Assembly: GCA_902801485.1 (NCBI GenBank)
Contig: CADCIP010000017.1
Location: 1-61,938, forward strand
Origin: an uncultured Bacteroidales bacterium
GTDB taxonomy: Bacteria > Bacteroidota > Bacteroidia > Bacteroidales > Bacteroidaceae
DNA length: 61,938 nt
Reading direction: 5' to 3'
A model generated the notes under the pieces. The model did no database searches, was not told where the DNA came from, and worked only from the letters and a program-made list of their open reading frames with translations. Numbering within the stretch: the first letter of the stretch is position 1; the number at the start of each line of letters is the position of its first letter. Made by a program: the position numbers and the translations under genes. Below, piece by piece: positions 2,342 through 26,388 of this stretch.

Positions 2342-2369
2342 GGTTAGCGGTTAGAGGTTAGCGGTTAGG
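2342..2369. repeat. Heptamer array (GGTTAGC x4)
   Basis: Four 7-bp units: GGTTAGC, GGTTAGA, GGTTAGC, GGTTAGG. Most of it is translated as the last residues (SLTANL) of the ECF sigma factor on the minus strand; the rest is the spacer to the next gene. Confidence 0.75.
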
Positions 2370-2902
2370 GAATTATACAATTTCCTTCTTATTCTGTAAA
2401 GCCTTACGGCCAGGGCCTTGGGGTCGGCGTCTGTGATGTAGGCTATTTCCTTGAGCGGCAGGTCGTCGAAGTAGTAGAGCGTCAGCAGCATTTGTTCCTC
2501 GTTGGGCAACTGTTGCACCAACTCCTGCAGTTTCTCTATGCGTTGCTCGTTGCCTGTCGAGAGGGCTGCTTCCAGCTCCTCGTCGCTGATATCTGTCTGC
2601 CAAACAGAGCTGTCTTCTATAGAGACAACTATGGGTCGGCGGCGTTTCAGGAAGTCAAGCGTCAGGCGATAAGCAATACGGCAAAGCCAGGTGGAGAGTG
2701 AAGACTGGCGGGCATCGTAGCGGTCGATATGGCGGAAGGCTTTCAGGAAAGTATCCTGCGTCAGCTCCTGAGCATCCATTATATCAGGCACCTGCTTCAC
2801 AATCATACAGAAGACCTGATTGACGAAGCGGCGAAACATTTCGTCTTGCCCTTCACGCTCGCCTTTCCTAACGGATTCCACTATTTGCTTTTCTGTCTGC
2901 AC
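2351..2902 (-). CDS. ECF-type RNA polymerase sigma factor
   Basis: A 183-residue group IV sigma factor that would direct RNA polymerase to a stress- or envelope-responsive set of promoters. Region 2 spans about residues 20-90 (ELTQDTFLKAFRHIDRYD... and the -10-binding STWLCRIAYRLTLDFLKRR). Region 4 spans about 120-178, with an HTH (LPLKEIAYITDADPKALAVRLYRIRRKL). Translation starts at a GTG (2900-2902); no ATG lies upstream in frame. It is followed by a membrane anti-sigma-type gene and a secreted protein, which form its likely operon. The C-terminal SLTANL is encoded by a heptamer repeat array and so is probably not functionally important. The target regulon is unknown. Confidence 0.9.
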   Translation of the reverse strand: MQTEKQIVESVRKGEREGQDEMFRRFVNQVFCMIVKQVPDIMDAQELTQDTFLKAFRHIDRYDARQSSLSTWLCRIAYRLTLDFLKRRRPIVVSIEDSSVWQTDISDEELEAALSTGNEQRIEKLQELVQQLPNEEQMLLTLYYFDDLPLKEIAYITDADPKALAVRLYRIRRKLYNSLTANL

Positions 2903-3030
2903 TTTTAACGTTTTGTTTATGCCTTTCTACTTGTTATACGACGGAATCGGAAAAATATTACACCCCACCCCAACTTTTTTTTGGAAAACAACAAAAAAGA
3001 TGAAATGAGCCAAGATTAATCAATGTTCAA

Positions 3031-3741: not shown

Positions 3742-3749
3742 AACGGGAA

Positions 3750-3757
3750 CAAAGATA
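3750..3757 (-). promoter_or_regulatory. -7 promoter element of the LytTR regulator gene
   Basis: TATCTTTG on the minus strand (matches TAnnTTTG), with TTTTG about 16 bp upstream as a possible -33 element. The expected transcription start falls at or within a few bases of the ATG at 3741. Confidence 0.6.
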
Positions 3758-3851
3758 ATACATTTCCCCCGTTCAAAAGCCATTGTAGGAGGGAAAAATC
3801 CCCTTATAGAGGGTTTCAGCAGGCAAACGAGGGGTTTTAACAGCCAAAAAA

Positions 3852-3883
3852 TTTGGTGCCCCTACCCTAATGCCGTACCTTTG
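3852..3883 (+). promoter_or_regulatory. Bacteroidetes-type promoter of the small membrane protein
   Basis: TTTG at 3852-3855 and TACCTTTG at 3876-3883, separated by 20 bp, a close match to the TTTG/TAnnTTTG consensus. It lies after the ATG at 3870 has begun, so the real start must be the ATG at 3930. Confidence 0.75.
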
Positions 3884-4646: not shown

Positions 4647-4650
4647 TTCA

Positions 4651-5817
4651 CTATAAGTGTTTTCTGCGCAGGAAACCGCCGATAGAGAGCAGAATAAGGA
4701 GAAACGTGACGATATAGGCCCAGATGTGGGTGACACGCGAGGTGGCGGTAATGGTGTAATCCTGAGGAATCAGGCGCTCACCCGTGAAGGGATAGAAGAC
4801 GGTCCCGTCGGGCTGCAACATGCCGTTTCCGGTATCGGTAACCTTGCCAGGCATGGTAAGGGTGTAGGGCACATTGAACCAGAAGATGTTCAGGCGGTTC
4901 ATGAATTCCCGGTTCAACGATTCGCCAAGAGGATTGCCTTCATCAAAGAACAACGCATAGGCATCCGAGTGGAAGAACACCCGAAGCTTCTCTTCCGGCT
5001 GAGCAGTCAGGATATCCTCCTCCCCAGCCATCATAAAGTGTACCAATGAATCCTGAAGCTCTATGAAACGCTCACGGCTGACGGGCGGATTGGGAATAGA
5101 ATCGTAGTGAGAGACGATGAAGTCGAAGCCCACCTTGAAGAGATTATCGTTGAGCCACTTGGTGACGGCAGGCTCCATGTTGCCCAGTTTCTCGTATGCT
5201 TCGGCTCCGTTCAGTCCTTGCAACAGATTGGGCTGGCCCGTAAACCAATAGCTTACAGCATCCTTGTCGGCATAATCTGTTGGGGGCAGCTTGAAGCTAT
5301 CGCCTACGCAGTAGAATGTTTCGGTAAAGACATATTCGGTATAGAACCAGCGGAAGCGCTTGTCCAGCTTGGCGTTCGAGCGAAGGCGTACCCCGTTCAG
5401 TTGCAAAGGTGTCTGCTCGCACATTTCTTCTACAGAGGAGAAGGGGCAGATAAATGTCGTCCTAACTGTATCGCCCTCGCCAACTTCTGTATGACTCTTG
5501 CAGAAAGCATCAACATTCAGGCACTCAGGCATGGGTTGAGACCATCCGCAGAGGTCTTTACCAAGAAGGGAATCCCTCTTTTCCTTAGACATCACATTAC
5601 TGTAGCTGACCTCGCGAGTGCAATCCTTTCCGAAACCGCCGTGAATTGTAGTATGCATCAAAACCTTAGGCTGATAGCATGAGGTAAAGAGCAGCCCCAC
5701 CACCAAACCGTAAACAGTAAACCGCAAACTGTAAACCGCAAACCGTAAACCGTAAACCGCAAACCGTAAACCGTAAACCGTAAACCGTAAACTGTAAACC
5801 AACTTACTTATTTTCAT
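4651..5817 (-). CDS. Lipoprotein with a heptamer-repeat signal peptide
   Basis: A 388-residue protein. After MKISKL the first 38 residues are a heptad peptide repeat (VYSLRFT/VYGLRFA). A short hydrophobic core VVGLLFTSC follows, with a lipobox whose Cys is near residue 47. The mature part has no domain I recognise. It ends with a single hydrophobic segment (HIWAYIVTFLLILLSIGGFL) and RRKHL, so both ends may be membrane-attached. The start overlaps the anti-sigma-type gene by 14 bp, which makes it the third gene of the operon. The 7-bp array in the 5' end means a one-unit slip would shift the reading frame and abolish the protein. Function unknown. Confidence 0.75.
   Translation of the reverse strand: MKISKLVYSLRFTVYGLRFAVYGLRFAVYSLRFTVYGLVVGLLFTSCYQPKVLMHTTIHGGFGKDCTREVSYSNVMSKEKRDSLLGKDLCGWSQPMPECLNVDAFCKSHTEVGEGDTVRTTFICPFSSVEEMCEQTPLQLNGVRLRSNAKLDKRFRWFYTEYVFTETFYCVGDSFKLPPTDYADKDAVSYWFTGQPNLLQGLNGAEAYEKLGNMEPAVTKWLNDNLFKVGFDFIVSHYDSIPNPPVSRERFIELQDSLVHFMMAGEEDILTAQPEEKLRVFFHSDAYALFFDEGNPLGESLNREFMNRLNIFWFNVPYTLTMPGKVTDTGNGMLQPDGTVFYPFTGERLIPQDYTITATSRVTHIWAYIVTFLLILLSIGGFLRRKHL
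5705..5800 (-). repeat. Heptamer array, 13.7 units, within a signal peptide
   Basis: Thirteen full 7-bp units plus 5 bp of AAACCGT (plus strand; variants AAACCGC, AAACTGT, AAACAGT). It is translated on the minus strand with a 21-bp/7-residue period. The units are not multiples of three, so unit gain or loss changes frame except in threes. Confidence 0.95.
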
Positions 5818-6247
5818 AAAGCATCGTTTTAAATTGGGTGTAACTTAAATGTTTCTCCTGATGCCGGTGGCCTGTGTACACATTCCTGAGGGTGCTGCCG
5901 GCAGAGAGGTTTGATGTATAATAATGAGGTACTTCATTCGTGTTTTCTGTAGGGAGATGCTGATACAGGAACAAGCCCACCAGCAATACAGCTGCCATAG
6001 AGGAAATGATAGAAAACCACCTGCGGCCCCTCTCCAAACCTCCCCCAAACGGGAGGCTTTTTTTTGCCACGATTGTGTCATACTCTGCCTCGCCTAAGGT
6101 CAGTTCACCCAACATCAGGCGGATGGCCTTCCATTCCTGAGGGATATCCGGACGTTGCAGTTCCAAGGCAATTTCTTGCTCCTTTTCCGGCGAAGTTTCG
6201 CCTTCCAGGTATTTGTTGATCAGTTGTTCTATATCTTTGTCCTTCAT
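5804..6247 (-). CDS. Anti-sigma-type membrane protein
   Basis: A 147-residue protein: acidic cytoplasmic N-terminus (KDKDIEQLINKYLEGETSPEKEQE, a pattern common in Bacteroidetes FecR-like anti-sigma proteins), one membrane segment (FSIISSMAAVLLVGLFLYQHL, about residues 82-102) and a 45-residue periplasmic tail. Its start codon overlaps the stop of the ECF sigma gene and its end overlaps the lipoprotein gene. It is far shorter than a full FecR. Residues about 64-74 (SLPFGGGLERG) are encoded by a palindromic repeat just before the membrane segment. I infer that it binds the sigma factor encoded immediately upstream. Confidence 0.75.
   Translation of the reverse strand: MKDKDIEQLINKYLEGETSPEKEQEIALELQRPDIPQEWKAIRLMLGELTLGEAEYDTIVAKKSLPFGGGLERGRRWFSIISSMAAVLLVGLFLYQHLPTENTNEVPHYYTSNLSAGSTLRNVYTGHRHQEKHLSYTQFKTMLYENK
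6027..6056 (-). repeat. GC-rich palindromic repeat in the anti-sigma-type gene
   Basis: CCTCCC (6039-6044) pairs with GGGAGG (6051-6056) around a 6-nt loop. The outer part CCCCTCTCCAAA is the complement of the GGAGAGGGG tail that marks the family. It is in frame, upstream of the membrane-segment codons. Confidence 0.7.
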
Positions 6248-6738
6248 TATTTCATCCTCCTTTTAAGTTCCGTGAAGACTTTCTTTCGTGCTGCTGATAC
6301 CATTGCCGTGATGGACGGCTTGGGGATTCCCGTTTCCGTAGATATTTCATCTACCGACAGACCCTCCAGCTGCCGCATCTCGAAGAGCTGCCGTTCCCGG
6401 GGTTTCAACAGGTCAAGTGCCTCTTCCAGCATCCGTTGCGTATCATTAGCCTCCATAATTTCCTGAGGAGAACTCCCAAGCTCCCCTCCATAGAGGGAGG
6501 GGATGGGGGCAGGTCTGTTTCTCCTGTACATACTTACGCAACAGTTCTTAGCCACTCTGACGGCCAGGGGCTCAATGTTGCGGCTGGCATCTATCTGCTC
6601 GCAGTAACGCCACAACTGCACCATCGTCTCCTGTGCGGCATCTTCGGCATCCTCTGGGGAACCGAAGAACTGAAGTCCTACCTTCAGAACCTTCTGACGC
6701 AACTGCGCAGCTATATGTTCGAATTCTGAGCGTGTCAT
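6247..6738 (-). CDS. ECF-type RNA polymerase sigma factor
   Basis: A 163-residue sigma factor. Region 2 lies at about residues 8-75 (FFGSPEDAEDAAQETMVQLWRYCEQID, VRVAKNCCVSMYRRN). Region 4 lies at about 105-160 (LKPRERQLFEMRQLEGLSVDEISTETGIPKPSITAMVSAARKKVF). The linker between them, PAPIPSLYGGELGSSPQE, is encoded by a GC-rich palindrome. It is the first gene of an operon with the membrane anti-sigma-type protein (start overlaps this stop), the repeat-bearing lipoprotein and the MGMT-family protein. The start ATG at 6736-6738 is the only sensible one. No strong TAnnTTTG is seen just upstream. The regulon is unknown. Confidence 0.9.
   Translation of the reverse strand: MTRSEFEHIAAQLRQKVLKVGLQFFGSPEDAEDAAQETMVQLWRYCEQIDASRNIEPLAVRVAKNCCVSMYRRNRPAPIPSLYGGELGSSPQEIMEANDTQRMLEEALDLLKPRERQLFEMRQLEGLSVDEISTETGIPKPSITAMVSAARKKVFTELKRRMK
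6481..6508 (-). repeat. GC-rich palindromic repeat in a sigma-factor linker
   Basis: CCCCTCC (6483-6489), loop ATAGAG, GGAGGGG (6496-6502). These 20 bases are the exact reverse complement of the copy at 1583-1602. It is in frame between sigma regions 2 and 4. Confidence 0.8.
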
Positions 6739-6769: not shown

Positions 6770-8128
6770 TTAAGTTAAGGATGAATCTTCGTCTAAACGG
6801 CCGCCCCAGAGGTATTTGTCTGTTTCGCGAGCAGCAACGCCACTCAACAAAAGCAGAGCCACAAGGTTGGGGATAGTCATTAGGGCATTCATCGTATCGG
6901 CGATGTTCCAAATAACATCCAGGCTGATGATGCTGCCGAAGAACAAAGCCACAATATAGAGAATGCGATAAAAGCGGTTGATGCGTTGATGTTCGATGTA
7001 GTTGACTGCACTCTCGCCGTAATAGCTCCAACCGAGGATGGTGCTGAAAGCAAATGTAAGAATACCGAAGGTAAGCAACGGAGCGCCGACATAAGGAATC
7101 TTGGAGAATGCTACCTTTGTCAATGCTGCCCCGTCGGCATAGCTGATATCGGGATGTGCCAGAATACTGCTGACGAGTACCAAACCTGTAAGGGCACAAA
7201 TGATTACCGTGTCCCAGAAAGTACCTGTACTGGAAACCAAAGCCTGACGAACGGGATTACGTGTCTGGGCTGCTGCAGCCACGATAGGAGCGCTACCCAT
7301 ACCACTCTCGTTAGAGAACAAGCCACGGGCAATACCATAGCGGGCTGCCATCATTACAGAAGCTCCTACAAAACCTCCGCCTGCCGCCATTGGGTTGAAG
7401 GCCGATTCGACGATAAGTTGCAAAGCTGGCCAGACAAAACTATAGTTCATATATAGTATATACAGGCAGCCAATCACATAGAGTAATGCCATGAATGGCA
7501 CAAGAATCGTACAGACTCGGGCAATGGACTTAACGCCTCCCATAATAACAACGGCTGTGAGCACGCTGACGAATATACCCACTATCCAAGAGGGAATACC
7601 AAAGGTCTCGCTGGCTAAGAGAGCAATGGAGTTGGCCTGAACAGTACAACCGATACCGAAACTGGCTAAGGCGGTGAAGATGGCAAAAACAAGGGCCAGC
7701 CATTTCATGCCAAGTCCGAGCTCCAAGGCGTACATAGGACCTCCGTAGGTTCGGCCGTCACTACCTTTTACACGGTATTTAACGGCTAATAACCCCTCGG
7801 CATACTTGGAGGCCATACCAAAGATACCCGTCAGCCAACACCAAAGTACGGCACCCGGTCCTCCGAGCGCCACAGCCGTAGCTACACCAACGATATTACC
7901 CGTTCCAATGGTAGCAGCAAGTGCTGTAGCCAATGCACCAAACTGAGATACGTCGCCCTTGGCATCCTTGTCTTTCTGTACCGACAGACGAATACCCGTC
8001 AGCAAACGACGTTGCGGGAAACGAAGCCGGAAAGTGAGGAATACATGTGTGCCCAGCAACATGATGACCATCGGCCATCCCCAAAGCACAGAGCTGAGTA
8101 GAGAGAAAAGGCTATTAATTTCGTCCAT
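6770..8128 (-). CDS. Sodium:alanine/glycine symporter (AGCS family)
   Basis: A 452-residue polytopic inner-membrane protein with about 10-11 hydrophobic segments. Family signatures are present: TALAATIGTGNIVGVATAVALGGPGA near residue 70-95, FSNESGMGSAPIVAAAAQTRNPVRQALVSS near 270-300, and the GWSYYGE region near 370. AGCS proteins import alanine, glycine or similar small amino acids with sodium. Length is normal for the family. It lies 130 bp downstream of the TrpB2 gene on the same strand; the spacer holds a 16-bp direct repeat (TTTTCCTGAGGCAGAA type, about 8153-8185) but no obvious promoter. Substrate cannot be assigned from sequence. Confidence 0.9.
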   Translation of the reverse strand: MDEINSLFSLLSSVLWGWPMVIMLLGTHVFLTFRLRFPQRRLLTGIRLSVQKDKDAKGDVSQFGALATALAATIGTGNIVGVATAVALGGPGAVLWCWLTGIFGMASKYAEGLLAVKYRVKGSDGRTYGGPMYALELGLGMKWLALVFAIFTALASFGIGCTVQANSIALLASETFGIPSWIVGIFVSVLTAVVIMGGVKSIARVCTILVPFMALLYVIGCLYILYMNYSFVWPALQLIVESAFNPMAAGGGFVGASVMMAARYGIARGLFSNESGMGSAPIVAAAAQTRNPVRQALVSSTGTFWDTVIICALTGLVLVSSILAHPDISYADGAALTKVAFSKIPYVGAPLLTFGILTFAFSTILGWSYYGESAVNYIEHQRINRFYRILYIVALFFGSIISLDVIWNIADTMNALMTIPNLVALLLLSGVAARETDKYLWGGRLDEDSSLT

Positions 8129-8258: not shown

Positions 8259-9620
8259 TTACATCTTTGGCAGTTTGTCCAAATACTCCTTAATAACCTC
8301 GTCGCTGGGGATGATGTCTGTCATCGTACCATTGTTATATTGCTCGTAGGCATAGAGGTCGAAGTAACCGGTACCGGTCAGACCAAAGAGAATTGTCTTC
8401 TCTTCGCCTGTCTCTTTGCATTTGAGGGCTTCATCGATGGCAACACGGATAGCGTGGCTGCTCTCGGGAGCAGGCAGAACACCCTCAACACGTGCAAACT
8501 GGGTGGCAGCATCGAAGACCTGAGTCTGCTCTACGGCGCGAGCCTCGAACAAACCATCGTGATACAACTGAGAAAGGATGGGACTCATACCGTGGAATCG
8601 CAGACCGCCTGCATGGTTGGCAGAGGGAATGAACTGGCTACCGAGGGTGTACATCTTGGCCAGAGGGCAGATCATACCGGTATCACAGAAGTCATAAGCA
8701 AACTTGCCACGGGTAAAGCTGGGACATGAAGCGGGCTCTACGGCAATTACCTTATAATCAGCCTCGCCTCTCAGCATCTCACCTATGAAGGGAGATACCA
8801 GACCGCCCAGGTTACTGCCGCCACCGGCACAACCAACGATAATGTCGGGCTTGATGCCATACTTGTCCAACGCCTTCTTGGCTTCCAGACCAATAACGGT
8901 CTGATGCAAAAGCACCTGATTCAACACAGAACCCAAAACATAGCGATAGCCGTCGCTGGTTACTGCAGCCTCTACAGCCTCACTGATGGCACATCCCAAA
9001 GAACCTGTGGTATCGGGGTGGTCTGCCAGAATCTTTCGGCCTACCTCTGTTGTCAGACTGGGAGAAGGGGTTACGGTAGCACCATAGGTACGCATCACTT
9101 CACGACGGAATGGCTTCTGCTCGTAGCTACACTTTACCATATACACACGACAATCCAGACCGAAATAGGCACAAGCCATACTCAGGGCTGTACCCCATTG
9201 TCCGGCACCCGTTTCGGTGGTAACACCTTTCAGGCCTTGCTTCTTAGCATAGTAAGCCTGGGCAATGGCGGAGTTCAACTTGTGGCTGCCCGAGGTATTG
9301 TTACCTTCGAACTTGTAATATATCTTGGCAGGCGTACCTAATGCTTTCTCCAGGAAATAAGCACGTACAAGTGGTGAAGGACGATACATTTTATAGAAAT
9401 TGAGTATCTCCTCGGGAATATCAAAGTAAGGAGTCTCGTTATCCAGTTCCTGTTTGTTCAAGTCCTCACAGAATATAGGATTAAGGTCTTCTAATGTCAG
9501 AGGTTTTCCCGTTCCAGGATTGATAAGCGGTGCAGGTTTGGTCTTCATGTCAGCACGGACATTGTACCATTGTGTCGGAATCTCGTTTTCCTCAAGATAA
9601 ATTTTGTAGGGGACTTTCAT
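8259..9620 (-). CDS. trpB: TrpB2-type tryptophan synthase beta chain
   Basis: A 453-residue PLP enzyme of the TrpB2 group, which is longer than TrpB1 and makes tryptophan from indole and serine. Visible are the PLP-lysine motif SGSHKLNSA, the glutamate-bearing ETGAGQWG loop and the phosphate-binding GCAGGGSNLGG. The N-terminal extension (IPTQWYNVRADM) is typical of TrpB2. No trpA or other trp gene is nearby; TrpB2 proteins often stand alone and may salvage indole. The gene follows panB by 39 bp, and that spacer is an AT-rich heptamer array. Cytoplasmic. Confidence 0.9.
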   Translation of the reverse strand: MKVPYKIYLEENEIPTQWYNVRADMKTKPAPLINPGTGKPLTLEDLNPIFCEDLNKQELDNETPYFDIPEEILNFYKMYRPSPLVRAYFLEKALGTPAKIYYKFEGNNTSGSHKLNSAIAQAYYAKKQGLKGVTTETGAGQWGTALSMACAYFGLDCRVYMVKCSYEQKPFRREVMRTYGATVTPSPSLTTEVGRKILADHPDTTGSLGCAISEAVEAAVTSDGYRYVLGSVLNQVLLHQTVIGLEAKKALDKYGIKPDIIVGCAGGGSNLGGLVSPFIGEMLRGEADYKVIAVEPASCPSFTRGKFAYDFCDTGMICPLAKMYTLGSQFIPSANHAGGLRFHGMSPILSQLYHDGLFEARAVEQTQVFDAATQFARVEGVLPAPESSHAIRVAIDEALKCKETGEEKTILFGLTGTGYFDLYAYEQYNNGTMTDIIPSDEVIKEYLDKLPKM

Positions 9621-9623
9621 AAT

Positions 9624-9660
9624 AGATTGATAATTTATGATTGATGATTATGGTTGATGT
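9624..9660. repeat. AT-rich heptamer-like array between panB and trpB
   Basis: Degenerate 7-bp units (GATTGAT, AATTTAT, GATTGAT, GATTATG, GTTGATG) fill the whole spacer before the trpB start. The period is recognisable but less regular than elsewhere. Confidence 0.5.
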
Positions 9661-10478
9661 TAATAACTCTCCGTTTCATTTGGGAAACTACCGTCCTTCA
9701 CATCTGTAATATACTGACCGATAGCATCGTTCATGATAGCGTGAAGGTCGGCATAGCGGCGCAGGAACTTTGGTTTGAAGCTATCGTTCATACCCAACAT
9801 ATCATGAGCTACCAGCACCTGGCCGTCGGCTATGCCGGCACCTATACCGATAACAGGAATAGAAACCATCTGGCAAACCTTCTTGGTAAGCTCGGCGGGA
9901 ATCTTCTCCAAAACCAAAGAGAAACATCCGGCTTGCTCAAGTAACTTGGCATCACTCAGCAACTTAGAAGCTTCTGCATCTTCTTTTGCTCTAACTGAAT
10001 AACCGCCAAACTTATATACGCTCTGAGGGGTGAGTCCCAAGTGGCCCATTACAGGAATTCCGGCATTGACAATACCGCGGATAGTATCTATAAACTCTTC
10101 GCCGCCTTCCAGTTTCAAGCCATCTACACCAGACTCGGCCATCATGCGCACAGCATTGCGAATACCATCTTCGCGGCTTATCTGATAAGATCCGAAGGGC
10201 ATATCGCAGATTACCATCGCTCTTTTTACACCACGAGCCACACAACGGGCATGATAAATCATCTCATCGATGGTAATGGGCAATGTAGTAAGATTGCCTG
10301 CCATAATGTTACTTGCACTATCGCCCACCAGAACAATGTCCATACCAGCCTGGTCAACAATCTGTGCCATCGTATAATCGTATGAAGTAAGCATGGCTAT
10401 CTTTTTGCCATCCTTCTTCATCTGCATGATTCTCTGGGTTGTTATTTTCTTTGTATCTTCAACAATATATGCTGCCAT
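9660..10478 (-). CDS. panB: 3-methyl-2-oxobutanoate hydroxymethyltransferase
   Basis: A 272-residue enzyme for the first committed step of pantothenate synthesis: it transfers a hydroxymethyl group from 5,10-methylene-tetrahydrofolate to alpha-ketoisovalerate, giving ketopantoate. Family motifs include KIAMLTSYDYTMAQIVDQAG, the metal/substrate site DIVLVGDSASN, the Mg-site region around MPFGSYQ and GLTPQSVYKFGGY, and IPVIGIGAGIADGQVLVAHDMLG. Length is normal. It has a clear promoter facing the divergent AddA gene. Its pathway partner coaBC is about 33 kb away. Confidence 0.95.
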   Translation of the reverse strand: MAAYIVEDTKKITTQRIMQMKKDGKKIAMLTSYDYTMAQIVDQAGMDIVLVGDSASNIMAGNLTTLPITIDEMIYHARCVARGVKRAMVICDMPFGSYQISREDGIRNAVRMMAESGVDGLKLEGGEEFIDTIRGIVNAGIPVMGHLGLTPQSVYKFGGYSVRAKEDAEASKLLSDAKLLEQAGCFSLVLEKIPAELTKKVCQMVSIPVIGIGAGIADGQVLVAHDMLGMNDSFKPKFLRRYADLHAIMNDAIGQYITDVKDGSFPNETESY

Positions 10479-10569: not shown

Positions 10570-13793
<3,224 letters not shown>

Positions 13794-13797: not shown

Positions 13798-16709
13798 AGA
13801 CATTTCTGAGTTTAGTAGCCAACGACCTTCTGAAGCGTTTTGGTAACAACATGCACAACGTAACGGTCGTGTTCCCTGGTAAGCGCGCCAGCCTTTTCCT
13901 TAATCAGGAACTGGCTCTGGCAAGCGATACACCCGTCTGGGCTCCGCGTTATATCACCATGAGCGACCTCTTCTACAGCCTCTCACCCTACGTGAAGGCT
14001 GACCCTATAGACAGCATTGCCTCTTTGTATCAGATTTTCAGCAAAACCATCCTCACGGAGGAAATACAGGAAGAATACTCGCTCGATAAGTTCTGGGGAT
14101 GGGGAGAGATTATCCTTTCCGATTTCGATGATATCGACAAACACCTTGCCGATGCAGAAGCTATCTTCTCCAATGTGTACGAACAGATGCAACTGGAGAA
14201 CTTGGATTATCTGACTAACGAGCAGAAAGATACACTCCAACATTTCTTTAAGAATTTCTCGGCCGAGGGCAATTCTCTCATCAAGGAACGTTTCTTAAAT
14301 GTCTGGTCTAAGATGTACCAGATGTACACAGACTTACGCAAAGAGCAGATGCAGGCAGGCACCGTTTACGAAGGGGCTATCTTCCGTAGCGTAATAGAAA
14401 GACTAAAAAAAGATGACACCCTCCTGACCTCCTTCCTGGCCGACCGGCAAACCATCGTCTTTGCAGGATTTAATGTCCTGAACGATGTAGAGCACGCCTT
14501 AATGTCTGCTATTCTGAAACAGGGCAAGGCACTCTTCTATTGGGATTACGACTGCTATTATGTAGAGAATCCCGAACACGAGGCTGGTGAATTTATGCGT
14601 CAGAATCTCAAGGACTTCCCTTGCGCCTTGGGTAAGGAGAACTACGACAACCTGCGTCACTTGCAGGATGTTACCTTCATCTCCTGTAATACCGATAATG
14701 CAGCGGCCCGCTATGCACATCAGTGGTTAACACTCCTGAAGGATAAGAATCTCCTCCCCGTAAAGGGGGAGGCCAGGAGAGGGTCTGTTATCCTCTGCAA
14801 CGAGAACCTTCTGCAACCCGTCCTGCACTCCCTGCCCCAGCAGGTTGAGAAGGTCAACATTACAATGGGCTTCCCCCTTACCGATGCCCCTATCTACAGC
14901 TTTGTTATGGCCTTGCTGTCGTTGCAGACAGACGGGTTCGACCTTACACAACAACGTTTCCGTCATCCCTTTGTGCAGGTTGTACAACACCATGTATATG
15001 CACCGCTCCTGGAAGAAGAACAATGGCTCAGGTATCAGGCAACGGACAACATGCAACTGCTTGCCTATCTGATAGAGATGGTGGAGAAGGTGGGTGTTCA
15101 TTTCTCCGAAATACAAGAACCCAATGTTTACGAGCAGCTATACATCGAGGCGATTTTCCAGACGCATCGAATACTGACAAAATTCCTGCAGTTGACCTGT
15201 CGCGATAAGAATCCGCTTGTAGTCCAGCACATCACCTTACGCCGTCTCTTGCGTACACTCTTGTGCAGTACCAGTATTCCATTCCACGGCGAACCGGCTC
15301 ACGGGTTGCAGGTAATGGGTGTCTTGGAGACGCGATGCCTCGATTTCTCCCACATGCTCATGCTGTCCGTAGAAGAAGGTATGCTCCCCAAAAACACGCA
15401 GGGCAACACGATGATCCCTGCCGATATACGCGAGGCATTCGGACTGACAACTCCACGCCACCGCATAGCTGTCTTTTCGTATTATTTCTACCGGCTGATA
15501 CAGCGAACGGAACATCTGACCTGTGTTTACAACGAGAACTGCGTTGGAAACAGCAAACACGAGATGTCGCGTTTCCTGCGTCAGATGCTGGCCGAGACGG
15601 AGATTCCTATCCGCACACTCTGGCTACGTAGCGATACAAGTATCCAGGATGCACAGACGCTTTCTGTCCCCAAGACACCTAAGATACTGCAGCGCATGCT
15701 AGAGCGCTATGACATCAATACCAGCGGAAAGAATGCCATCCCACTAAGCCCGTCTGTTATTAATACGTATATGACGTGCCCTCTGAAGTTCTTTCTGGCT
15801 CACGTCTCGGGCCTCCGTGCCGATGTCGATCCGCAGGATGGACTCAACGCCCCGCTCATAGGTGACATCTTCCACGATACGGCAGAACTTATCTACAAAC
15901 GTATCATACAACGAACAGGAAGTCATATTATCCAGCGCAACACGCTCTCCGAATTGCTTTCCGATATGGAGGGGCTTGTCGGTCCTATACTGGATATCGT
16001 CTTTGACACTGTCTATTTCCATCCAGCCGACCATTGGCAGCGCACAGAGGAAGCTTGGAAGATGGTCTGTCGAGATTCCCGTCCTGGAAACCAATACACA
16101 GGCGAACTCATCATCATACGTCGTGTACTTATGCAGTATCTTACCAACCTGCTTCGTTACGACCTTCGCCACACGCCCTTCCGCATCATCGCTACAGAAA
16201 CAGACAGAATGTTCAATGTTCAATTAACAATGAACAATTCAACTAACTCTGAACTCTCAACTCTAAACTCTCAACTAAACATCACCACCGGAGGTCGTAT
16301 AGACCGACTGGATGAACAGGACGGCCGCATCCGTGTGGTGGATTACAAGACAGGATATCATGTGCCCAGTATCAAGAGCATGGATGACGTCACCAATACG
16401 GCAGGCAAGCATGAAGGATATTTCTTACAAGCATTCCTCTACTCGTATGCCGTGCTGCAGAACGACAAACCGCAGCTCCCGCTCGTTCCAGCCCTCTTCT
16501 ATCCCGGTAAGGCGTACAAGGAGGATTACGACCCAACCCTCACCATAGACAAAAATGTTATAGAGGATTTTGCACCTTTGGCCGACGAGTTTTACAAGGG
16601 ACTGACTCAAGTAGTGAAGCAGATATTCTCGCCCGACTACAGTTTTACACAGACTCCCGAAGTAAAGGACTGCGCCAACTGCGACTTCAAACTACTTTGC
16701 GGAAGATGA
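13794..16709 (+). CDS. addB: AddB-type PD-(D/E)XK nuclease subunit
   Basis: A 971-residue partner of AddA. The N-terminal part is a degenerate helicase-like fold with FPGKRASLF where a Walker A would be. The C-terminal third carries a RecB-type nuclease motif (GRIDRLDEQDGRIRVVDYKTG) and a four-cysteine arrangement: one Cys in TCPLKFF (about residue 662) and CANCDFKLLC at the very end. That matches the AddB iron-sulfur staple that brackets the nuclease. The start overlaps the addA stop as ATGA. Two repeats are translated within it: a GC-rich palindrome (NLLPVKGEARRG) and a heptamer block (TMNNSTNSELSTLNSQL) just before the nuclease motif. Confidence 0.8.
14751..14783 (+). repeat. GC-rich palindromic repeat inside addB
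   Basis: CCTCCCC (14753-14759), loop GTAAAG, GGGGAGG (14766-14772), then the tail CCAGGAGAGGG. It is in frame and encodes LLPVKGEARRG. Confidence 0.8.
16208..16277 (+). repeat. Mixed heptamer block inside addB
   Basis: AATGTTC/AATTAAC/AATGAAC-type units run straight into AACTCTG/AACTCTC/AACTCTA units, about ten 7-bp units in all, translated as a Ser/Asn/Leu-rich segment. It shows that the two heptamer sequence types can be joined. Confidence 0.75.
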
Positions 16710-18663: not shown

Positions 18664-18672
18664 ACTATAGCA

Positions 18673-18760
18673 TAATTCACAAAGCATAATGCATAATTAT
18701 AGATAAAAAATAACATATAAAAAGAAAATTATCCACGGTGAATTGTGAATTATGAATTAA
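18673..18760. repeat. AT-rich heptamer-like repeats before the tRNA
   Basis: CATAATTCAC/GCATAAT/GCATAAT units at about 18673-18702 and GTGAATTGTGAATTATGAATT at about 18738-18760, the second a 7-bp period (TGAATTG, TGAATTA). The two halves are partly inverted relative to each other. The second half sits where the -33 element of the tRNA promoter would be. Confidence 0.55.
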
Positions 18761-18799: not shown

Positions 18800-18874
18800 G
18801 GTTCGGTAGCTCAGTTGGATTAGAGCAGCAGCCTTCTAAGCTGCGGGTCAAGGGTTCGAGCCCCTTCCGAATCA
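18800..18874 (+). tRNA. tRNA-Arg (anticodon TCT)
   Basis: Cloverleaf read by eye: acceptor GGTTCGG pairs with CCGAATC (one G-U); D arm GCTC...GAGC; anticodon stem GCAGC/GCTGC with loop CTTCTAA, anticodon TCT at 18835-18837; T arm AGGGG-type stem with loop TTCGAGC; discriminator A at 18874. CCA is not encoded. It decodes AGA. It has its own promoter and is followed 9 bp later by a terminator. Confidence 0.95.
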
Positions 18875-18883
18875 CAAACAAAG

Positions 18884-18920
18884 AGGGTGTGGCAAATAAA
18901 ATGTCGCATCCTTTTTTTTT
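18884..18920 (+). terminator. Rho-independent terminator after tRNA-Arg
   Basis: An 11-bp stem AGGGTGTGGCA / TGTCGCATCCT (three G-U pairs) with a 7-nt A-rich loop, followed by nine T. It overlaps the in-frame GTG at 18889, ruling that out as the start of the next gene. Confidence 0.85.
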
Positions 18921-18930
18921 AATTGGAATC

Positions 18931-21804
18931 ATGAAGTTAATAGTTTTGATTCTTTGTGCATTGGTTTTGTTGCCGGGCAGAACAAATAGTCAGGTGATAA
19001 TAAACGAGATTCAGGTGGCCAACGTGGATATGTTCATTGACCCTTCGTTCAACTATGGAAGTTGGATAGAGTTGTATAATCCCACAGAGCAAAGCATATC
19101 ACTCTCGGGCATGAAACTTCGCCACACAAACTCAGAAGGTAAGATAAATGAACAAAAACTGACGGAACTGCACGGAACACTACCACCCGACGGGTATCTG
19201 CTTTTGTGGTTCGATCATAACAGCAAAGATGGTTATTATGGCCGAACAGCCGGTCAGCAAATTCCTTTTAAGATGGATGAAGAAGGTGGCATAGTAGAAC
19301 TTTATAATTCCATAAATATTCTACAGGACGCTACAAGCTATCCGCCAGCCGTAACACGTTGTTCCTTTGCCCGCTTTCCCGACGGAGGTAATACATGGGG
19401 CATGACTTCAGAACCTAGTCCCAAGCGTTCAAATGTCGAAAGCACTTTCTCTGATGAACGACTCAACATGCCAGAAACAGACCATAAGGGCGGATTGTTT
19501 AATGAATCACTCTCTTTCAAAGTAAACATCCCTGCAGGAACAACGCTCTATTATACGACAGACGGTGCTACACCCATTCCAGGTAAAAGCCAAGTTTCAG
19601 ATTCCGGCATATTCTCCGTTACAGAAACTTGCATTTACCGCTTTATGCTCACTCAGGAGGGCTACTTAAACAGTCCCGTGACAACCCGATCATTCATTAA
19701 GAAAAACCGGGACTATTACCTGCCCGTAGTAAGCGTTACCACTCACCCGGACAATCTGTTCGGCGACTCCATAGGCCTATATGTACAAGGAGTAAACGGA
19801 CGAACAGGCAACAACAAAGGAATACCCATGAACCAGAATATGGACTGGGAACGCCCCGTAAATGTGGAGTACTTCGTATCAGACGAGCAAGGAGTATGGA
19901 AGGAGGAACTGAATCAAGGTGCGCTGTTTAGTATTTTTGGCGGATGGACACGTTTCAATGATGGTGACGAAACTTTCCAATACAAGCCATCATTCAAATT
20001 AAAAGCTGATAAGCTATGCGAAGGTCTGAACTTCTATCCCTACCCCGTTTTTCAGGCAAAACCTTACATCAAGAACAAAACATTGTTAGTGCGTAACGGT
20101 GGACAAGACCAACACGGCCGTATCTGGGATGCCGTAATCCAAGACCTGTTAATCAGCAGCGGTATCAACCTAGACTGTCAAGCCTCTCAGCCAGCACACA
20201 TCTTTTTGAACGGTCTTCCACTAGGCATGTTTAATCTGCGAGAGGCAAGCAACCGCAGCTACGCCTACAGCAACTATGGTATAGGCAACGACGAAATAGA
20301 CCAATGGGAAAACGAATTCTTGATAAAAGCAGGTACCGGTGCAATATACACAACATGGCAGACGCTATGCCAAAAGTTAAGTGCCAACCCGACTAACGAG
20401 TCCATATGGAAAGATATCTGCAAAATTGTGGATGTAGATGAATACTGTAATTATATGGCGGCTGAAATCTACATGGGGAACCTGGATTGGTTACGTGGAG
20501 GACTAAAAAACATTAAGGGATTCCACTGCAACAAAGACGACGGAAAGATTCACATCGTGGTATTCGATCTAGACGGGTGTTTCGGAGACACAGACATGAT
20601 TCAGCAAGTCTACAGGAAAGGCAGCGGCAAACAACTGGATATATTCAAAAACATGCTCAAATATCAGCCTTTCCGTCAGCAGTTCATAGATGCTTATTGT
20701 CTAATGGGCGGCAGCATATTCCTGCCAGAGCGATGCGTTCCCATCATCCGCCAATGGGAAGCCAATATAACACCCGCCCTATCATGGGAAGGCAATGAGC
20801 CACATACCCGTGCTGACCGCCTCTGTAACACACTTACAGATAGAGCGAATCAGCATGAGAAACGCATGGCCAGTCTGAAGGCTCAGTTTGGCCTTACAAA
20901 AGAGATGAGTGCCCGAATAGAAACCACCACCCCATTGGCACGCATCTTACTGAACGGGCAGGAAATTCCAACATCTTATTTTTCCGGCACCTTATTCGAG
21001 AAGGCTGAACTCACAGCCGTAATTCCAGAAGGTTACCAGTTCATAGGTTGGCAGGTAAACGGCAAAACCATTTCAACAGATACCGTATTGAATGCCATGA
21101 ACTATGCAAACTTGAATCCACACATCACTCTGGCTTTGAAACGCAATAAAACGGTCAATCCCATCAGGATTAATGAGGTCAGTTCTGCAAATGACATCTA
21201 CATAAGCGACTATCTTAAGAAAAGCGACTGGATAGAACTCTATAACACTACCGATGAGGCGATTAACATCTCTGGCGCTTACCTTACAGACAATCCCGAC
21301 AAACCATATAAGTACCAACTCTCAACTTTAGACTCTCAACTCTCAAAATTAATTATTCCACCACACGGCTACCGCATTGTCTGGTGTGATAACAACGTAC
21401 CCATAACCCAACTACATGCTGCATTCAGATTAGAAAACACAGACAACGCCTACGTTGGCATAAGGGCTGCTGATGGGTCGTGGGCAGACAGCCTAATCTA
21501 TCAGTCTCAAGGCCGCTGGCAGAGCTACGGCAGATTCCCTGACGGGACTGACAATTATGCATTGTTCGACCGTATAACAATTGAAGATAGTAACCGTATC
21601 AATACTCATACAGTTATCACCACCCCCGACTGGGAAACAGGTAAGAAATCGGTATTGATGCAAAAAAACAGACAGATTGCATCTATACAATATTTTAATA
21701 TGTCAGGTCAGCGTTTGAGCAGTCCAAAAGATGAACATATCGTTATACGACGCATCATCTATGATGACGGAACCGTGGAAAGCCGTAAGATGATAAACTT
21801 ATAG
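18931..21804 (+). CDS. Secreted CotH-kinase-like protein with two lamin-tail domains
   Basis: About 957 residues from the ATG at 18931, which begins a good signal peptide (MKLIVLILCALVLLPGRTNS). Order: lamin-tail domain (VIINEIQVAN... SWIELYNP), a chitobiase-C-terminal-like domain (TTLYYTTDGATPIPG), a CotH kinase-like domain (about residues 250-620, with FLIKAGTGA and HIVVFDLDGCFGD), an InlB-type repeat (FEKAELTAVIPEGYQFIGWQVNGK), a second lamin-tail domain (IRINEVSSAND... DWIELYNT) and a C-terminal tail (IQYFNMSGQRL..., DGTVESRKM) of the kind seen on exported Prevotella proteins. CotH relatives in other bacteria phosphorylate proteins; here the target is unknown. A heptamer repeat is translated in the second lamin-tail domain (QLSTLDSQLS). 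Confidence 0.8.
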   Translation: MKLIVLILCALVLLPGRTNSQVIINEIQVANVDMFIDPSFNYGSWIELYNPTEQSISLSGMKLRHTNSEGKINEQKLTELHGTLPPDGYLLLWFDHNSKDGYYGRTAGQQIPFKMDEEGGIVELYNSINILQDATSYPPAVTRCSFARFPDGGNTWGMTSEPSPKRSNVESTFSDERLNMPETDHKGGLFNESLSFKVNIPAGTTLYYTTDGATPIPGKSQVSDSGIFSVTETCIYRFMLTQEGYLNSPVTTRSFIKKNRDYYLPVVSVTTHPDNLFGDSIGLYVQGVNGRTGNNKGIPMNQNMDWERPVNVEYFVSDEQGVWKEELNQGALFSIFGGWTRFNDGDETFQYKPSFKLKADKLCEGLNFYPYPVFQAKPYIKNKTLLVRNGGQDQHGRIWDAVIQDLLISSGINLDCQASQPAHIFLNGLPLGMFNLREASNRSYAYSNYGIGNDEIDQWENEFLIKAGTGAIYTTWQTLCQKLSANPTNESIWKDICKIVDVDEYCNYMAAEIYMGNLDWLRGGLKNIKGFHCNKDDGKIHIVVFDLDGCFGDTDMIQQVYRKGSGKQLDIFKNMLKYQPFRQQFIDAYCLMGGSIFLPERCVPIIRQWEANITPALSWEGNEPHTRADRLCNTLTDRANQHEKRMASLKAQFGLTKEMSARIETTTPLARILLNGQEIPTSYFSGTLFEKAELTAVIPEGYQFIGWQVNGKTISTDTVLNAMNYANLNPHITLALKRNKTVNPIRINEVSSANDIYISDYLKKSDWIELYNTTDEAINISGAYLTDNPDKPYKYQLSTLDSQLSKLIIPPHGYRIVWCDNNVPITQLHAAFRLENTDNAYVGIRAADGSWADSLIYQSQGRWQSYGRFPDGTDNYALFDRITIEDSNRINTHTVITTPDWETGKKSVLMQKNRQIASIQYFNMSGQRLSSPKDEHIVIRRIIYDDGTVESRKMINL
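21316..21343 (+). repeat. Heptamer array inside the CotH-type gene
   Basis: CAACTCT, CAACTTT, AGACTCT, CAACTCT: four 7-bp units, translated as QLSTLDSQLS in the second lamin-tail domain. Confidence 0.85.
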
Positions 21805-23238: not shown

Positions 23239-26200
23239 TTATTTCTGACTCACTTTCCAATAAATCACAGGCAGCATTGTAACGACCATGATAAGCGAAC
23301 CGATACCACCGGCAAAAATAGTAACACCAACAGGCATCCAGAAACTGGACTGTGCAATAATCATTGGCACAACACCAACGGCCGTAGTAGCCGTAGTAAG
23401 GAAAATGGGCACCATGCGGCGCTTTCCTGCATCGTAGGCAGCCTGCTTAACAGCTTCGTTATAACCCTTGCGGTCAACCGTCCAGTCGCCATGCTCGGCA
23501 ACATGCTTCTTTATCAAGTCTATGGCGTGCTCAAAGATGAGAATCTCGTTTCGCATAATCATACCCATCAGTGTTATAAGCCCGAAGATGGATGTAAGAC
23601 CTAATGCTCGGTTCATCAATCCTAAACCTATCAGGGCACCAGGAATCAGAAGCGCCAGTGCCACCATACATATCATGGTTATACCGTACTTCTTGAAATT
23701 GAACAGCAAGAAGAAGAACACAATAACCATGGCTATAGTAATACCGGCATAAATCTGCGGCATAGCCTCGGCGCCATTCTCCAACTCACCGCCCACCTCA
23801 GAGCGCACACCTTGTGGAATGAGGATTTCTTTCTCCATAATTTTGGCAATCTTCTTCTCGATAGGCGTTGTATATATTCCCTGTTCAAAATGTGCCGTTA
23901 CAGTAATGCAACGCTCGCCTCCGCGGTGCACAATGCGACTCTCAGTCCAACGGGGCTTCACATCAGCAATCTGACGCAAGGGGATGGTGGTATTTTTTTG
24001 GCCAAGTACTGTTGAGGCCATAGTAACAGGTGTAGCAATACCCAGATTCTCAATATCGGAGAACGTCATGTCGGCATCATCCTTAACAACGATAGGCACC
24101 TCGTAATTCCCCTCCCAAAGCTGCCCAACGCGTAAATCGCTGGAGGTAGCATTCAAGGCCAACTCAGCCGTAGCCCTGCTAACACCTAACTGGGCAGAAG
24201 TCACAGGGTTGAGCTGCACACTGACCATGGGGAAGGGCTGTAAGTAATCCGTATGCACCCATTCCAACTCGGGCAACTGGCGCATACGCTTTATCAGCCT
24301 TTCAGCCACAATGTGCAGCGAGTCGATGTTCTCACCATAAAAACGGTACTCCAACTCGGGTACTCTCATAAAATCCAGTCTTTTGAACATGACGTAAGCA
24401 TTGGGGAATGCCTCGCCTAAACGGGGTTGATACTCAGAAAGGAGGTCGAGTGTGGCACTATTCGACTTTGTATTCACAATAAACTGAGCATAATTCTTGC
24501 CTGCTATCTGAGGTGCATAACAATCCATGAAGCGAGGCGAAGAACAGCCTATGAAACTGGTGATGTTGGTAATGCGCTTATCTTTAGCAAGGACGCTTTG
24601 TACAGAATCTGCCACTGCGCGGGTTTCTGCCAAGCCTTTTCCGTCAGGCAGATATATCTCCACAGCAAACTGGTCGCGGTCGGCATACGGGAAAAGCCTG
24701 ATTTTAAGCGTGGGAATAATGAGTAGTGAAAGGACAATCACTACCACACCTCCGCCAATGGTAATCCAGGGGAAGCGGAAAGTGAAATCAAGAACGTGAT
24801 CGTACGTCTTCTGCACAAAGTTGGTAATGGCATTGCCCTCGGTACTTACCTTCCCTGGCTTGATGATACGTACCTCCAGGAAGGGAATCACAGTAACAGC
24901 CAACAGCAGGGAAACCATCAGGTTGATGGTGATGGTCATTGGGAAATAATACAGTGCATCCAGGAACATTCCCTTCAGCGTAGCCAGGAAGGGGAAGAAG
25001 ATACTGCAGATGCAGACGGTAGCCAGCATCATAGGCATAAAGTACTGACGAGCTGATGCAATGGCGGCCGCCTTAGGTTCGTAGCCCTTTCCCAGATACT
25101 CCAGATAGCCGTCGATGACCACAATGGAGTTGTCCACTATCATTCCCAGCACTACAATAAGTGCCGCCAGCGTGATGATGTTCAGTTCGATACCCATCAT
25201 ATACATGATAGACACGCTCACAAATGTACTGATAGGAATGGTAGCCGAGGCTACAATGGCCGAACGGATGGGGAACAGCACCATCATAACCAGAATAATG
25301 ATAACCATAGAGATGAGCAAGTCACGAAGGAAATCGTGCACACTCTTGGCAACAACCTTGGGTTTGTCGGCAATACGGGTAACATTTACGTCGGAAGGCA
25401 ATTCGTTCTGGCGGAAAGCCTTCAGTACCTTGTCAACCTCACGTCCATACTGAATCACATTATTGCCTGGCGACATTTCCATAGAAAGCAATACGCAAGG
25501 ATGTCCGTCCTGATTGATAAAACTGTTATCACTGTCATACTCCCTAACCACACGGGCCACATCTCTCACACGAGCTACCTTGCCAGTAGCAGGGTCGGAG
25601 AAGATTATCTGGTTGGCAATCTCCTCTTCTGTGTTTTCTATGGTCTCTACGTGTATAGGAATCTGCTGGTCGTCATCGCTAAGACTGCCACTTGTGGTGA
25701 TAAGGCCCTGCGCCTGCAAACGTGTAAATAGCAACTGCTGGCCTATACCGTATGCCTGCAAACGCTGACGATCAACGTAAAGGGAAATCTGTTCTTTCTG
25801 CTCGCCAAACAGTTTAACATTGGCAACCGATGGGATGCGACGCAGGCGGTCACTCAGATTGTCGCTGTACTCTTTCAACTCACGATAACTACGCTGCTCA
25901 CTCTCAATGGCAATCAACAAGGCTGAGGTATTGCCGAAGTCGTCATTCACAATAACACCCAGAACGCCCTGTGGCAAAGAATGTTTGAAGGTATTAATTC
26001 CATGCTTAATCTTGCTCCAGACTTCCTCTTTATTATTTACATCATCGTTCAGTTCAACCATCACTATGCACATACCGTTCTGCGATGTGGTGGTGGTCTT
26101 GATACGATTAACTTCTCCGAATGTGAACAGATAGCGCTCCAACGGGCGGGCTACCTGCTGTTCTACTTCCTCGCTGGTGGCACCAGGATAAACCGCCACC

Positions 26201-26355
26201 ACTACTCCCTGACGGATGGTAACTTGCGGAAACTCGTCTTTGGGCATTTCATACATACCCATGATGCCCAACACAAACAGGATACCTATGATAAGCAAGG
26301 ATATAGGATAGTGTTCCAATTGCCATGCCAGCCAATTCTGCATCTTAGTTTGCAT
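23239..26355 (-). CDS. RND-family efflux pump permease
   Basis: About 1038 residues from the ATG at 26355 (MQTKMQNWLAWQLEH). A longer reading to 26385 would start at TTG and translate a heptamer repeat. It is an inner-membrane proton antiporter with 12 membrane segments: the first is ISLLIIGILFVLGIMGMYEM, followed by two large periplasmic loops and the usual ALIVVLGMIVDNSIVVIDGYLE region in TM4. The length and MPKDEFPQV-type start of the first loop fit the AcrB/heavy-metal-efflux superfamily; the substrate cannot be told from the sequence. It follows the adaptor gene directly and is controlled, I infer, by the divergent AraC regulator. Confidence 0.9.
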   Translation of the reverse strand: MQTKMQNWLAWQLEHYPISLLIIGILFVLGIMGMYEMPKDEFPQVTIRQGVVVAVYPGATSEEVEQQVARPLERYLFTFGEVNRIKTTTTSQNGMCIVMVELNDDVNNKEEVWSKIKHGINTFKHSLPQGVLGVIVNDDFGNTSALLIAIESEQRSYRELKEYSDNLSDRLRRIPSVANVKLFGEQKEQISLYVDRQRLQAYGIGQQLLFTRLQAQGLITTSGSLSDDDQQIPIHVETIENTEEEIANQIIFSDPATGKVARVRDVARVVREYDSDNSFINQDGHPCVLLSMEMSPGNNVIQYGREVDKVLKAFRQNELPSDVNVTRIADKPKVVAKSVHDFLRDLLISMVIIILVMMVLFPIRSAIVASATIPISTFVSVSIMYMMGIELNIITLAALIVVLGMIVDNSIVVIDGYLEYLGKGYEPKAAAIASARQYFMPMMLATVCICSIFFPFLATLKGMFLDALYYFPMTITINLMVSLLLAVTVIPFLEVRIIKPGKVSTEGNAITNFVQKTYDHVLDFTFRFPWITIGGGVVVIVLSLLIIPTLKIRLFPYADRDQFAVEIYLPDGKGLAETRAVADSVQSVLAKDKRITNITSFIGCSSPRFMDCYAPQIAGKNYAQFIVNTKSNSATLDLLSEYQPRLGEAFPNAYVMFKRLDFMRVPELEYRFYGENIDSLHIVAERLIKRMRQLPELEWVHTDYLQPFPMVSVQLNPVTSAQLGVSRATAELALNATSSDLRVGQLWEGNYEVPIVVKDDADMTFSDIENLGIATPVTMASTVLGQKNTTIPLRQIADVKPRWTESRIVHRGGERCITVTAHFEQGIYTTPIEKKIAKIMEKEILIPQGVRSEVGGELENGAEAMPQIYAGITIAMVIVFFFLLFNFKKYGITMICMVALALLIPGALIGLGLMNRALGLTSIFGLITLMGMIMRNEILIFEHAIDLIKKHVAEHGDWTVDRKGYNEAVKQAAYDAGKRRMVPIFLTTATTAVGVVPMIIAQSSFWMPVGVTIFAGGIGSLIMVVTMLPVIYWKVSQK

Positions 26356-26388
26356 AACTATTAACTCTCTACTTTCAACTCTCAACTA
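26353..26388 (-). repeat. Heptamer array bridging adaptor stop and pump start
   Basis: On the coding strand: AGTTGAG, AGTTGAA, AGTAGAG, AGTTAAT, AGTTATG, five 7-bp units. The last supplies the pump ATG; the first is joined to the adaptor's TAG stop. Confidence 0.8.

What the first reader, a model, noticed from the sequence alone, without database searches (positions are those of the whole stretch)
2342..26388. A dispersed family of heptamer arrays, many translated as heptad peptides
Seen directly: 7-bp tandem arrays at 2342 (GGTTAGC), 5705 (AAACCGT), 9624, 13107 (CAACTCT), 16208, 18673-18760, 21316 and 26353. Units differ in sequence but share the 7-bp period and often a GTTnA/AACTn core. In AddA, AddB and the CotH protein they give NSQLSTLNSQL-like insertions at domain boundaries. 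Two sequence types are joined at 16208. A common mechanism (slippage templated at 7 bp, or a heptamer-adding element) is possible. I do not know a described class with these properties in this phylum, though repeat peptides like NSQLSTL are familiar in Prevotella proteins.
Basis: partly seen in the sequence, partly recalled or inferred. Interest (0 to 1): 0.72.

Follow-up and report, generated by a model that had tools for sequence, protein, structure and literature searches.

The report
Dispersed seven-base repeats rewriting gene loops
This uncultured rumen bacterium appears to carry hundreds of short arrays of seven-base repeats, more than a quarter of those sampled lying inside genes, and sister species hold different seven-base repeats at the same spots; it is a known but little-studied kind of bacterial repeat at very high density that visibly reshapes spacers and protein loops.

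Summary
All the named arrays are present, and seven is the outstanding repeat period: in 800 kb of the same genome, 98 strong period-7 segments against 9 at period 6, 9 at period 8, at most 15 at any other tested period that is not a multiple of 7, and 0 in Markov sequence. The arrays share a core, TMAAYNN. Of 149 sampled arrays, 42 lie wholly inside predicted genes, in permissive places such as signal-like peptides, a C-terminal turn and enzyme loops.

The class is known: heptanucleotide simple-sequence repeats (PMC4679880, PMC4692102). What stands out is turnover. Slots in AddA, AddB, ileS and a tRNA-Arg upstream region hold different heptamers in sister species. Against a close relative, 11 of 17 arrays are essentially unchanged, two keep length with rewritten units, and one is replaced by an unrelated palindrome. 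Unit repertoire is lineage-specific. MutS loss is excluded. A structured ~75-nt element sits in register inside some arrays.

Best reading: slippage in 7-bp steps plus exchange between arrays, tolerated where function allows. The exchange, and why seven, are unproven.

The parts
2342..2368 (.). GGTTAGC/GGTTAGA array spanning the stop codon of the ECF-type sigma factor ORF 2351-2902 (-)
   Evidence: Pfam Sigma70_r2 and r4_2
5705..5800 (-). AAACCGT array, 13.7 copies, coding residues 6-38 of ORF 4651-5817 (-), a signal-like N-terminus (by eye)
   Evidence: no Pfam match for the protein
9625..9659 (.). Degenerate GATTGAT array filling the gap between ORFs 8259-9620 (-) and 9660-10478 (-)
   Evidence: the relatives differ here
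13107..13139 (+). Perfect CAACTCT array (33 bp, NSQLSTLNSQL) in the AddA-like protein, between UvrD_C and PDDEXK_1
16208..16238 (+). AATGTTC/AACAATG-type array in the AddB-like protein, inside PDDEXK_1
16245..16276 (+). AACTCTN array joined to the previous one, just before GGRIDRLD in the AddB-like protein
18670..18697 (.). Weak GCATAAT array downstream of ORF 16762-18663 (+)
   Evidence: only (71% matches)
18738..18759 (.). AATTGTG/AATTATG array ending 7 nt before a TAnnTTTG box, upstream of tRNA-Arg 18800-18875
21316..21346 (+). Degenerate CAACTCT array in the C-terminal lamin-tail domain of the CotH-domain protein 18889-21804
26355..26387 (.). AACTCTC-type array filling the 30-bp gap between the TAG of ORF 26386-27513 (-) and an ATG (26355-26353) of the RND-type pump ORF 23239-26385 (-)
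   Evidence: Pfam ACR_tran

Best explanation
The arrays are a lineage-specific, dispersed family of heptanucleotide simple-sequence repeats. Shown: seven is the dominant period; the arrays share the unit core TMAAYNN; the unit repertoire is similar in the near relative and less so in others; four of the five array indels between the two close genomes are multiples of 7 bp; the same slots carry different units in sister species; at AddA the array stands in place of linker sequence. Inferred: a short direct repeat such as AAYTNNNAAYT (4-bp microhomology at 7-bp spacing) seeds strand slippage; in genes a step of three units (21 bp) keeps the frame, so coding arrays cluster near 11+21 = 32-33 bp; short exchanges between arrays at different loci (template switching or conversion through the shared heptamers) keep the repertoire alike within a lineage and rewrite arrays without changing length. 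No dedicated enzyme or single function is needed. A minority of arrays lie right upstream of promoter-like boxes.
For: Period 7: 98 segments against 9 and 9 at periods 6 and 8. Shared motif against permuted controls. 65 unit classes against 122 or more for 149 random intergenic 7-mers; commonest class 14 against a null maximum of 6. Repertoire cosine 0.82 with G065, 0.00-0.51 with nine other genomes or loci (several hold only 4-7 arrays). Array indels of 7, 21, 21 and 42 bp, plus one of 5. Unit rewriting at constant length at L035:10867 and L070:7994. Different units at orthologous AddA, AddB, ileS and tRNA-Arg slots. AddA loops of 9 and 16 aa differ by 21 bp. Coding arrays: 24 of 42 measure 30-36 bp. 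A further weak 7-periodic segment flanks 49 of 149 arrays, against 1.7% of random 40-bp windows.
Against: Exchange between loci was not observed; it is inferred from repertoire and rewriting. Outside arrays no tandem 7-bp indel was seen (one 7-bp indel, not tandem), so a genome-wide tendency to slip by seven is not shown. Most arrays are stable: 11 of 17 essentially unchanged. The L035:10867 rewriting lies in a diverged stretch (flanks 90% and 82%), so older replacement is possible; the L070:7994 change could be three substitutions. The ratio of within-array variability between unit positions (3.7) is no larger than in the permuted null (mean 3.6, maximum 6.3), although its spread is (0.074 against at most 0.056). 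Lengths of intergenic arrays are broad. Nothing explains why G004, placed in the same genus, has no array in 80 kb.
Confidence: 0.55

Rival explanations
1. Independent slippage only: each array grew on its own from a chance seed, with no exchange between loci, and the shared core reflects a polymerase or sequence preference.
For: 7-bp and 21-bp steps; heptameric repeats arise in unrelated phyla (PMC4679880, PMC4692102 passages); L054's AddB loop has the 15-aa length of array-free remote homologues yet is 7-periodic.
Against: Strong concentration of unit classes and a lineage-specific repertoire; unit rewriting at constant length; array replaced by an unrelated palindrome at L034:9386.
Confidence: 0.25
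2. The arrays are binding sites (DNA or RNA) for a regulator, kept by selection.
For: TAnnTTTG boxes within 10 nt of an array end: 12 against 3.3 expected over 100 arrays centred in intergenic DNA; 30-bp-scale arrays with a preferred start and end phase (start 39 of 109, end 42 of 109).
Against: 42 of 149 arrays are wholly coding and sit in essential or housekeeping genes as loop peptides; units at one slot differ between species; one array is swapped for a palindrome.
Confidence: 0.08
3. A dedicated mobile or heptamer-adding element creates the arrays.
For: Length mode near 32 bp (46 of 149 and 38 of 89 arrays at 30-34 bp), phased ends, array-free member of the same genus, and element X associated with arrays.
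Against: No common flank found beyond paralogues, neighbouring arrays and X; X lies inside arrays and is absent from about half or more of the sites tested (9 of 20 copies in arrays; 149 arrays in the sample against 10 strong X copies there); genomes with few X matches still have many arrays (G029: 1 match, 22.5 arrays per 100 kb). No candidate enzyme was looked for.
Confidence: 0.08
4. Assembly artefact or loss of mismatch repair.
For: All genomes here are drafts; short-read assembly can misjudge repeats.
Against: Three window arrays recur letter for letter in a separately deposited MAG. mutS1 matches in 41 of 41 genus genomes, 39 over the cut-off, including G000 and the array-free G004.
Confidence: 0.03

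Closest known systems
Heptanucleotide long simple-sequence repeats (Mrazek et al. 2007, known here only as described in PMC4679880 and PMC4692102)
   Same: Tandem heptamers far above expectation; seven the commonest unit; mainly intergenic; slippage proposed; close relatives differ in length and sequence.
   Different: Here a family of related units rather than one; 42 of 149 wholly coding although 7 is not a multiple of 3; units swapped at fixed slots between sister species.
TAACTGA direct repeats of Beggiatoaceae, cyanobacteria and five Bacteroidetes (PMC4679880)
   Same: Heptamer direct repeats, many near start codons; close relatives of Gramella and Aequorivita lack them at the same gene pair.
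   Different: [quoted passage not shown] here many related heptamers are.
GGGAATC and GGGGA(C/T)T repeats of Xanthomonas and Nostoc (PMC4692102)
   Same: Dispersed heptamer arrays varying in length and sequence between close relatives.
   Different: Those are G-rich and G-quadruplex prone; these are A+T-rich.
Rickettsia palindromic elements (PMC10969869 passages)
   Same: Repeats accepted in frame inside many unrelated protein-coding genes.
   Different: RPEs are palindromes of about 150 bp; these are 7-bp tandem arrays, typically near 33 bp in genes.

Membership tests
Heptanucleotide long simple-sequence repeats | Tandem arrays of a 5-11-nt unit longer than expected, with seven the commonest | tested here: met
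Heptanucleotide long simple-sequence repeats | Copy number changes by whole units (slippage) | tested here: met
   array indels 7, 21, 21, 42 and one of 5 bp between two genomes; few events
Heptanucleotide long simple-sequence repeats | Units not divisible by three kept out of coding DNA | tested here: not met
   42 of 149 wholly coding. This is a stated tendency, not a defining rule; coding DNA is 87% of the sample, so arrays are still enriched in intergenic DNA
TAACTGA repeats | One dominant unit, with related heptamers rarely repeated | tested here: not met
   65 unit classes among 149 arrays, commonest 14
Phase-variable contingency repeats | High copy-number mutability between close strains | tested here: inconclusive
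   11 of 17 arrays essentially unchanged against G065; no strain series available
Rickettsia palindromic elements | Palindromic element of about 150 bp inserted in frame | tested here: not met
   arrays are tandem and mostly 17-60 bp
Mobile element | Common ends or flanks, or an enzyme that tracks the arrays | tested here: inconclusive
   no common flank beyond paralogues, neighbouring arrays and X; enzyme not sought

The most novel reading that the evidence does not exclude
The arrays are exchangeable modules of about 32 bp (five AAYT boxes at 7-bp spacing) that are copied between loci. Permissive slots in spacers, promoters, signal peptides and enzyme loops (AddA, AddB, even ileS) are repeatedly overwritten by whatever heptamer module the lineage carries, or by a G/C-rich palindrome, and they serve as in-register landing sites for a covarying ~75-nt element: a layered system that keeps rewriting linkers.
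Probability: 0.25. Interest if true: 0.78.

Novelty: new variant of a known kind. Interest (0 to 1): 0.52.

Why it matters
Heptameric repeats have been noted as over-abundant in bacteria without an established cause. A genus with very many of them, a member with none in the stretch held, a close relative and fixed slots holding different units makes the open questions testable: why seven, whether arrays exchange between loci, and how enzymes accept the peptides. Practically, NSQLSTL-like stretches in these proteins are repeat-derived and should not be read as conserved motifs.

Tried and rejected
Rejected: chance; mismatch-repair loss; ancient conserved protein sequence; clean 33-bp insertion at AddA. 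Not found: a common mobile flank around arrays (read by eye with follow-up of one group).

Weak or mixed: sharing of slots between arrays and the G/C-rich palindrome is seen in single cases (L034:9386 against L133; AddB of L051, L056, L058); proximity counts are small. Within 20 bp: 5 of 100 arrays centred in intergenic DNA against 1.5% of random intergenic points, 1 of 49 centred in coding DNA against 1.0%. Within 50 bp: 7 of 100 against 3.0%, 5 of 49 against 1.4%. A strict 32-bp module: the length mode is clear for coding arrays (24 of 42 at 30-36 bp) but broad for intergenic ones (33 of 79 at 27-35 bp), so frame-keeping explains much of it (I had noted 25 of 42 earlier and recounted). The heterogeneity-ratio test did not exceed its null.

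Limits: extraction of the AddB slot by a strict text pattern failed for 23 of 30 genome-search loci; of the 6 remote homologues read, one (L164) is 7-periodic there. The AddA pattern missed L055, which has the same array. The tRNA-Arg slot was covered in 5 of 9 genomes. Of the four ileS slots read outside the window, three have arrays. The reversed-pattern control is a rotation of the unit; it is close to another unit of the family (TCTAAAC) and also hits (G000 76+47, G218 139+122), so it is no negative control. Gene calls are from a home-made script. Rfam was searched for only two loci holding element X. Whole genome not analysed: 800 kb plus the window of 3.6 Mb.
Full report
What is there. 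The strongest are 5705-5800 (13.7 copies) and 13107-13139 (perfect); 9625, 18670 and 21316 are degenerate. The window is contig C17 of a 3.6-Mb, 85-contig draft genome, 85% complete. Its nearest named relative found is a sheep-rumen MAG labelled Bacteroidaceae with 99% AddA identity.

Is seven special? Yes. In 400 kb chosen by contig number, 32 loci have exact lag-7 runs of 10 or more, against 7 at period 6, 2 at period 8, 13 at period 12 and 0 in a Markov copy. In 800 kb at a stricter score it is 98 against 9 (period 6), 9 (8), 13 (9), 15 (12) and 0 in Markov sequence. A period-9 pattern has no genome hit, whereas CAACTCT x3 with up to 2 mismatches has 171 overlapping hits. The held sample (862 kb with the window) has 149 arrays, 17.3 per 100 kb, about 620 per genome by extrapolation.

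One family. An EM alignment of 149 arrays scores 487.5 against at most 359.5 in 20 column-permuted sets. Units fall in 65 classes against 122 or more for random intergenic 7-mers. The repertoire resembles that of the close relative G065 (cosine 0.82) and less so nine other genomes or loci (0.00-0.51), several of which hold only 4-7 arrays. Against this reading, the ratio of variability between unit positions is no greater than in the permuted null.

Where they sit. By a home-made gene caller, 79 are intergenic, 28 cross a gene edge and 42 are wholly coding, in DNA that is 87% coding. By eye, coding arrays lie in N-terminal signal-like segments, in the turn of a C-terminal GRK..GLYI..GKK hairpin (seven clear cases) and in enzyme loops. 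AddA's array is between UvrD_C and PDDEXK_1, AddB's is inside PDDEXK_1 and the CotH protein's is inside a lamin-tail domain. The array at 26355 fills the whole gap between a stop codon and the next ATG. Over 100 arrays centred in intergenic DNA, TAnnTTTG boxes within 10 nt of an end number 12 against 3.3 expected.

How they change. Against G065 (122 kb aligned; 23 of 26 blocks at 94-99.5% identity, three at 90-93%), 17 arrays have clear flanks. Eleven are the same length with at most one change. One (L044:8426) has the same body with changes at one end. Two keep length but have rewritten units (L035:10867, in a diverged stretch, and L070:7994, three A/T differences at the same unit position). 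One differs by one unit (L070:15690). One is replaced by a G/C-rich palindrome (L034:9386). One lies in diverged sequence (L032:2745). Seen from G065, three further sites differ: L137:19387 has three more units than the own genome, L139:19399 is degenerate in the own genome, and L148:5287 falls below the threshold there. Array indels in 119 kb are 5, 7, 21, 21 and 42 bp; outside arrays the single 7-bp indel is not tandem.

Slots. At AddA the window and L055 have CAACTCT, L051 CAATTCT, L056 CAACTGT, L054 a CGATTCT-like array, L052 only 12 bp of CAACTCT, and L053, L057 and L058 none. Loops are 16 aa (window, L056, L054), 9 (L052), 39 (L051) and 14 (the three array-free ones). At AddB all nine genomes (window and L051-L058) have 7-periodic DNA, with different units in most and loops of 15-46 aa; L055 equals the window. 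In ileS (NCBIfam) L053 has a perfect 32-bp AACTCTC array, L058 a degenerate one of the same length, L051 an ATTGAAC-type one, and L057 none. The tRNA-Arg upstream slot, covered in five genomes, has AATTATG-type arrays in the window, L052 and L053 and TCTTCAY-type arrays in L056 and L057.

Distribution. G004, placed in the same genus, has none in 80 kb; ten genomes of other families of the order have none in 324 kb held. Across the phylum 142 of 296 genomes match CAATTCT x3 within 3 mismatches; the window's genome has the most forward-pattern hits (140). The reversed pattern hits too, for it resembles other units of the family, so this is a survey and not a controlled count. mutS1 matches in 41 of 41 genus genomes, 39 over the cut-off.

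Mechanism. Shown: 7-bp steps, unit turnover at fixed slots, a lineage-specific repertoire, replacement of linker at AddA. Inferred: slippage from short direct repeats at 7-bp spacing, a 21-bp step in coding DNA, exchange between arrays. Not explained: why seven, and why G004 has none. The proposal that 7 nt matches the DNA segment interacting with the polymerase is in the literature (passages of PMC4679880 and PMC4692102) and was not tested here.

Element X. A ~75-nt repeat lies inside some arrays. Of 20 copies at E<=1e-6 (one orthologous pair included), the joined flanks form a 7-periodic array in 9, against 4 of 600 random points and 32 of 1500 random intergenic points. In the joins one AA remains, so X may duplicate AA. 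Its consensus fold has 19 pairs, 9 with compensatory double changes among 14 copies. Rfam gave no match over it in the two loci searched. It has 23 matches in the window's genome, 40 in G066 and 0 in G004; none was found in the window. X appears to have entered existing arrays rather than made them.

Known or new. The class is known (PMC4679880: abstract, find passages and section 12 seen; PMC4692102 and PMC10969869: find passages seen). Nine searches of the held library listed no account of heptamer families in this group or of unit replacement at fixed slots; that is no proof that none exists. I file it as a new variant: very high density, a family of related units, a large coding share and slot rewriting.

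Noticed in passing
L046:16561-16645; L064:14080-14156; L077:4069-4150 and 7678-7760; L120:3481-3561; L051:9003-9079: Dispersed ~75-nt structured element X lying in register inside heptamer arrays, with compensatory base changes and no Rfam match in the two loci searched.
   Followed up: partly
L035:4783-4874; L040:10662-10744; L061:625-704; L073:2826-2908; L051:8841-8990: Second dispersed element Y (~80 bp) beside or inside C-rich/G-rich palindromes, and in L051 apparently nested inside element X.
   Followed up: no
window about 1565-1610, 2221-2250, 6020-6060, 6480-6510, 14750-14790: G/C-rich palindromic repeat (CCCCTCCC..GGGAGGGG family), once in frame inside AddB; at L034:9386 it takes the place of a heptamer array in the relative G065.
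   Followed up: partly
window 1988-2076: 9/18-bp array GACTCATGG with 4.9 copies of the 18-bp unit, in ORF 1666-2340 (-), no Pfam match.
   Followed up: no
L043:2938; L045:17854; L050:8197; L061:1421; L063:8204 and 11242; L075:229: Heptamer arrays recur at the same turn of a C-terminal GRK..GLYI..GKK hairpin in unrelated-looking proteins (by eye).
   Followed up: no
window 26388-61938: Almost no heptamer array in the last 35 kb of the window (only a two-copy match at 54456), so arrays are unevenly spread.
   Followed up: no
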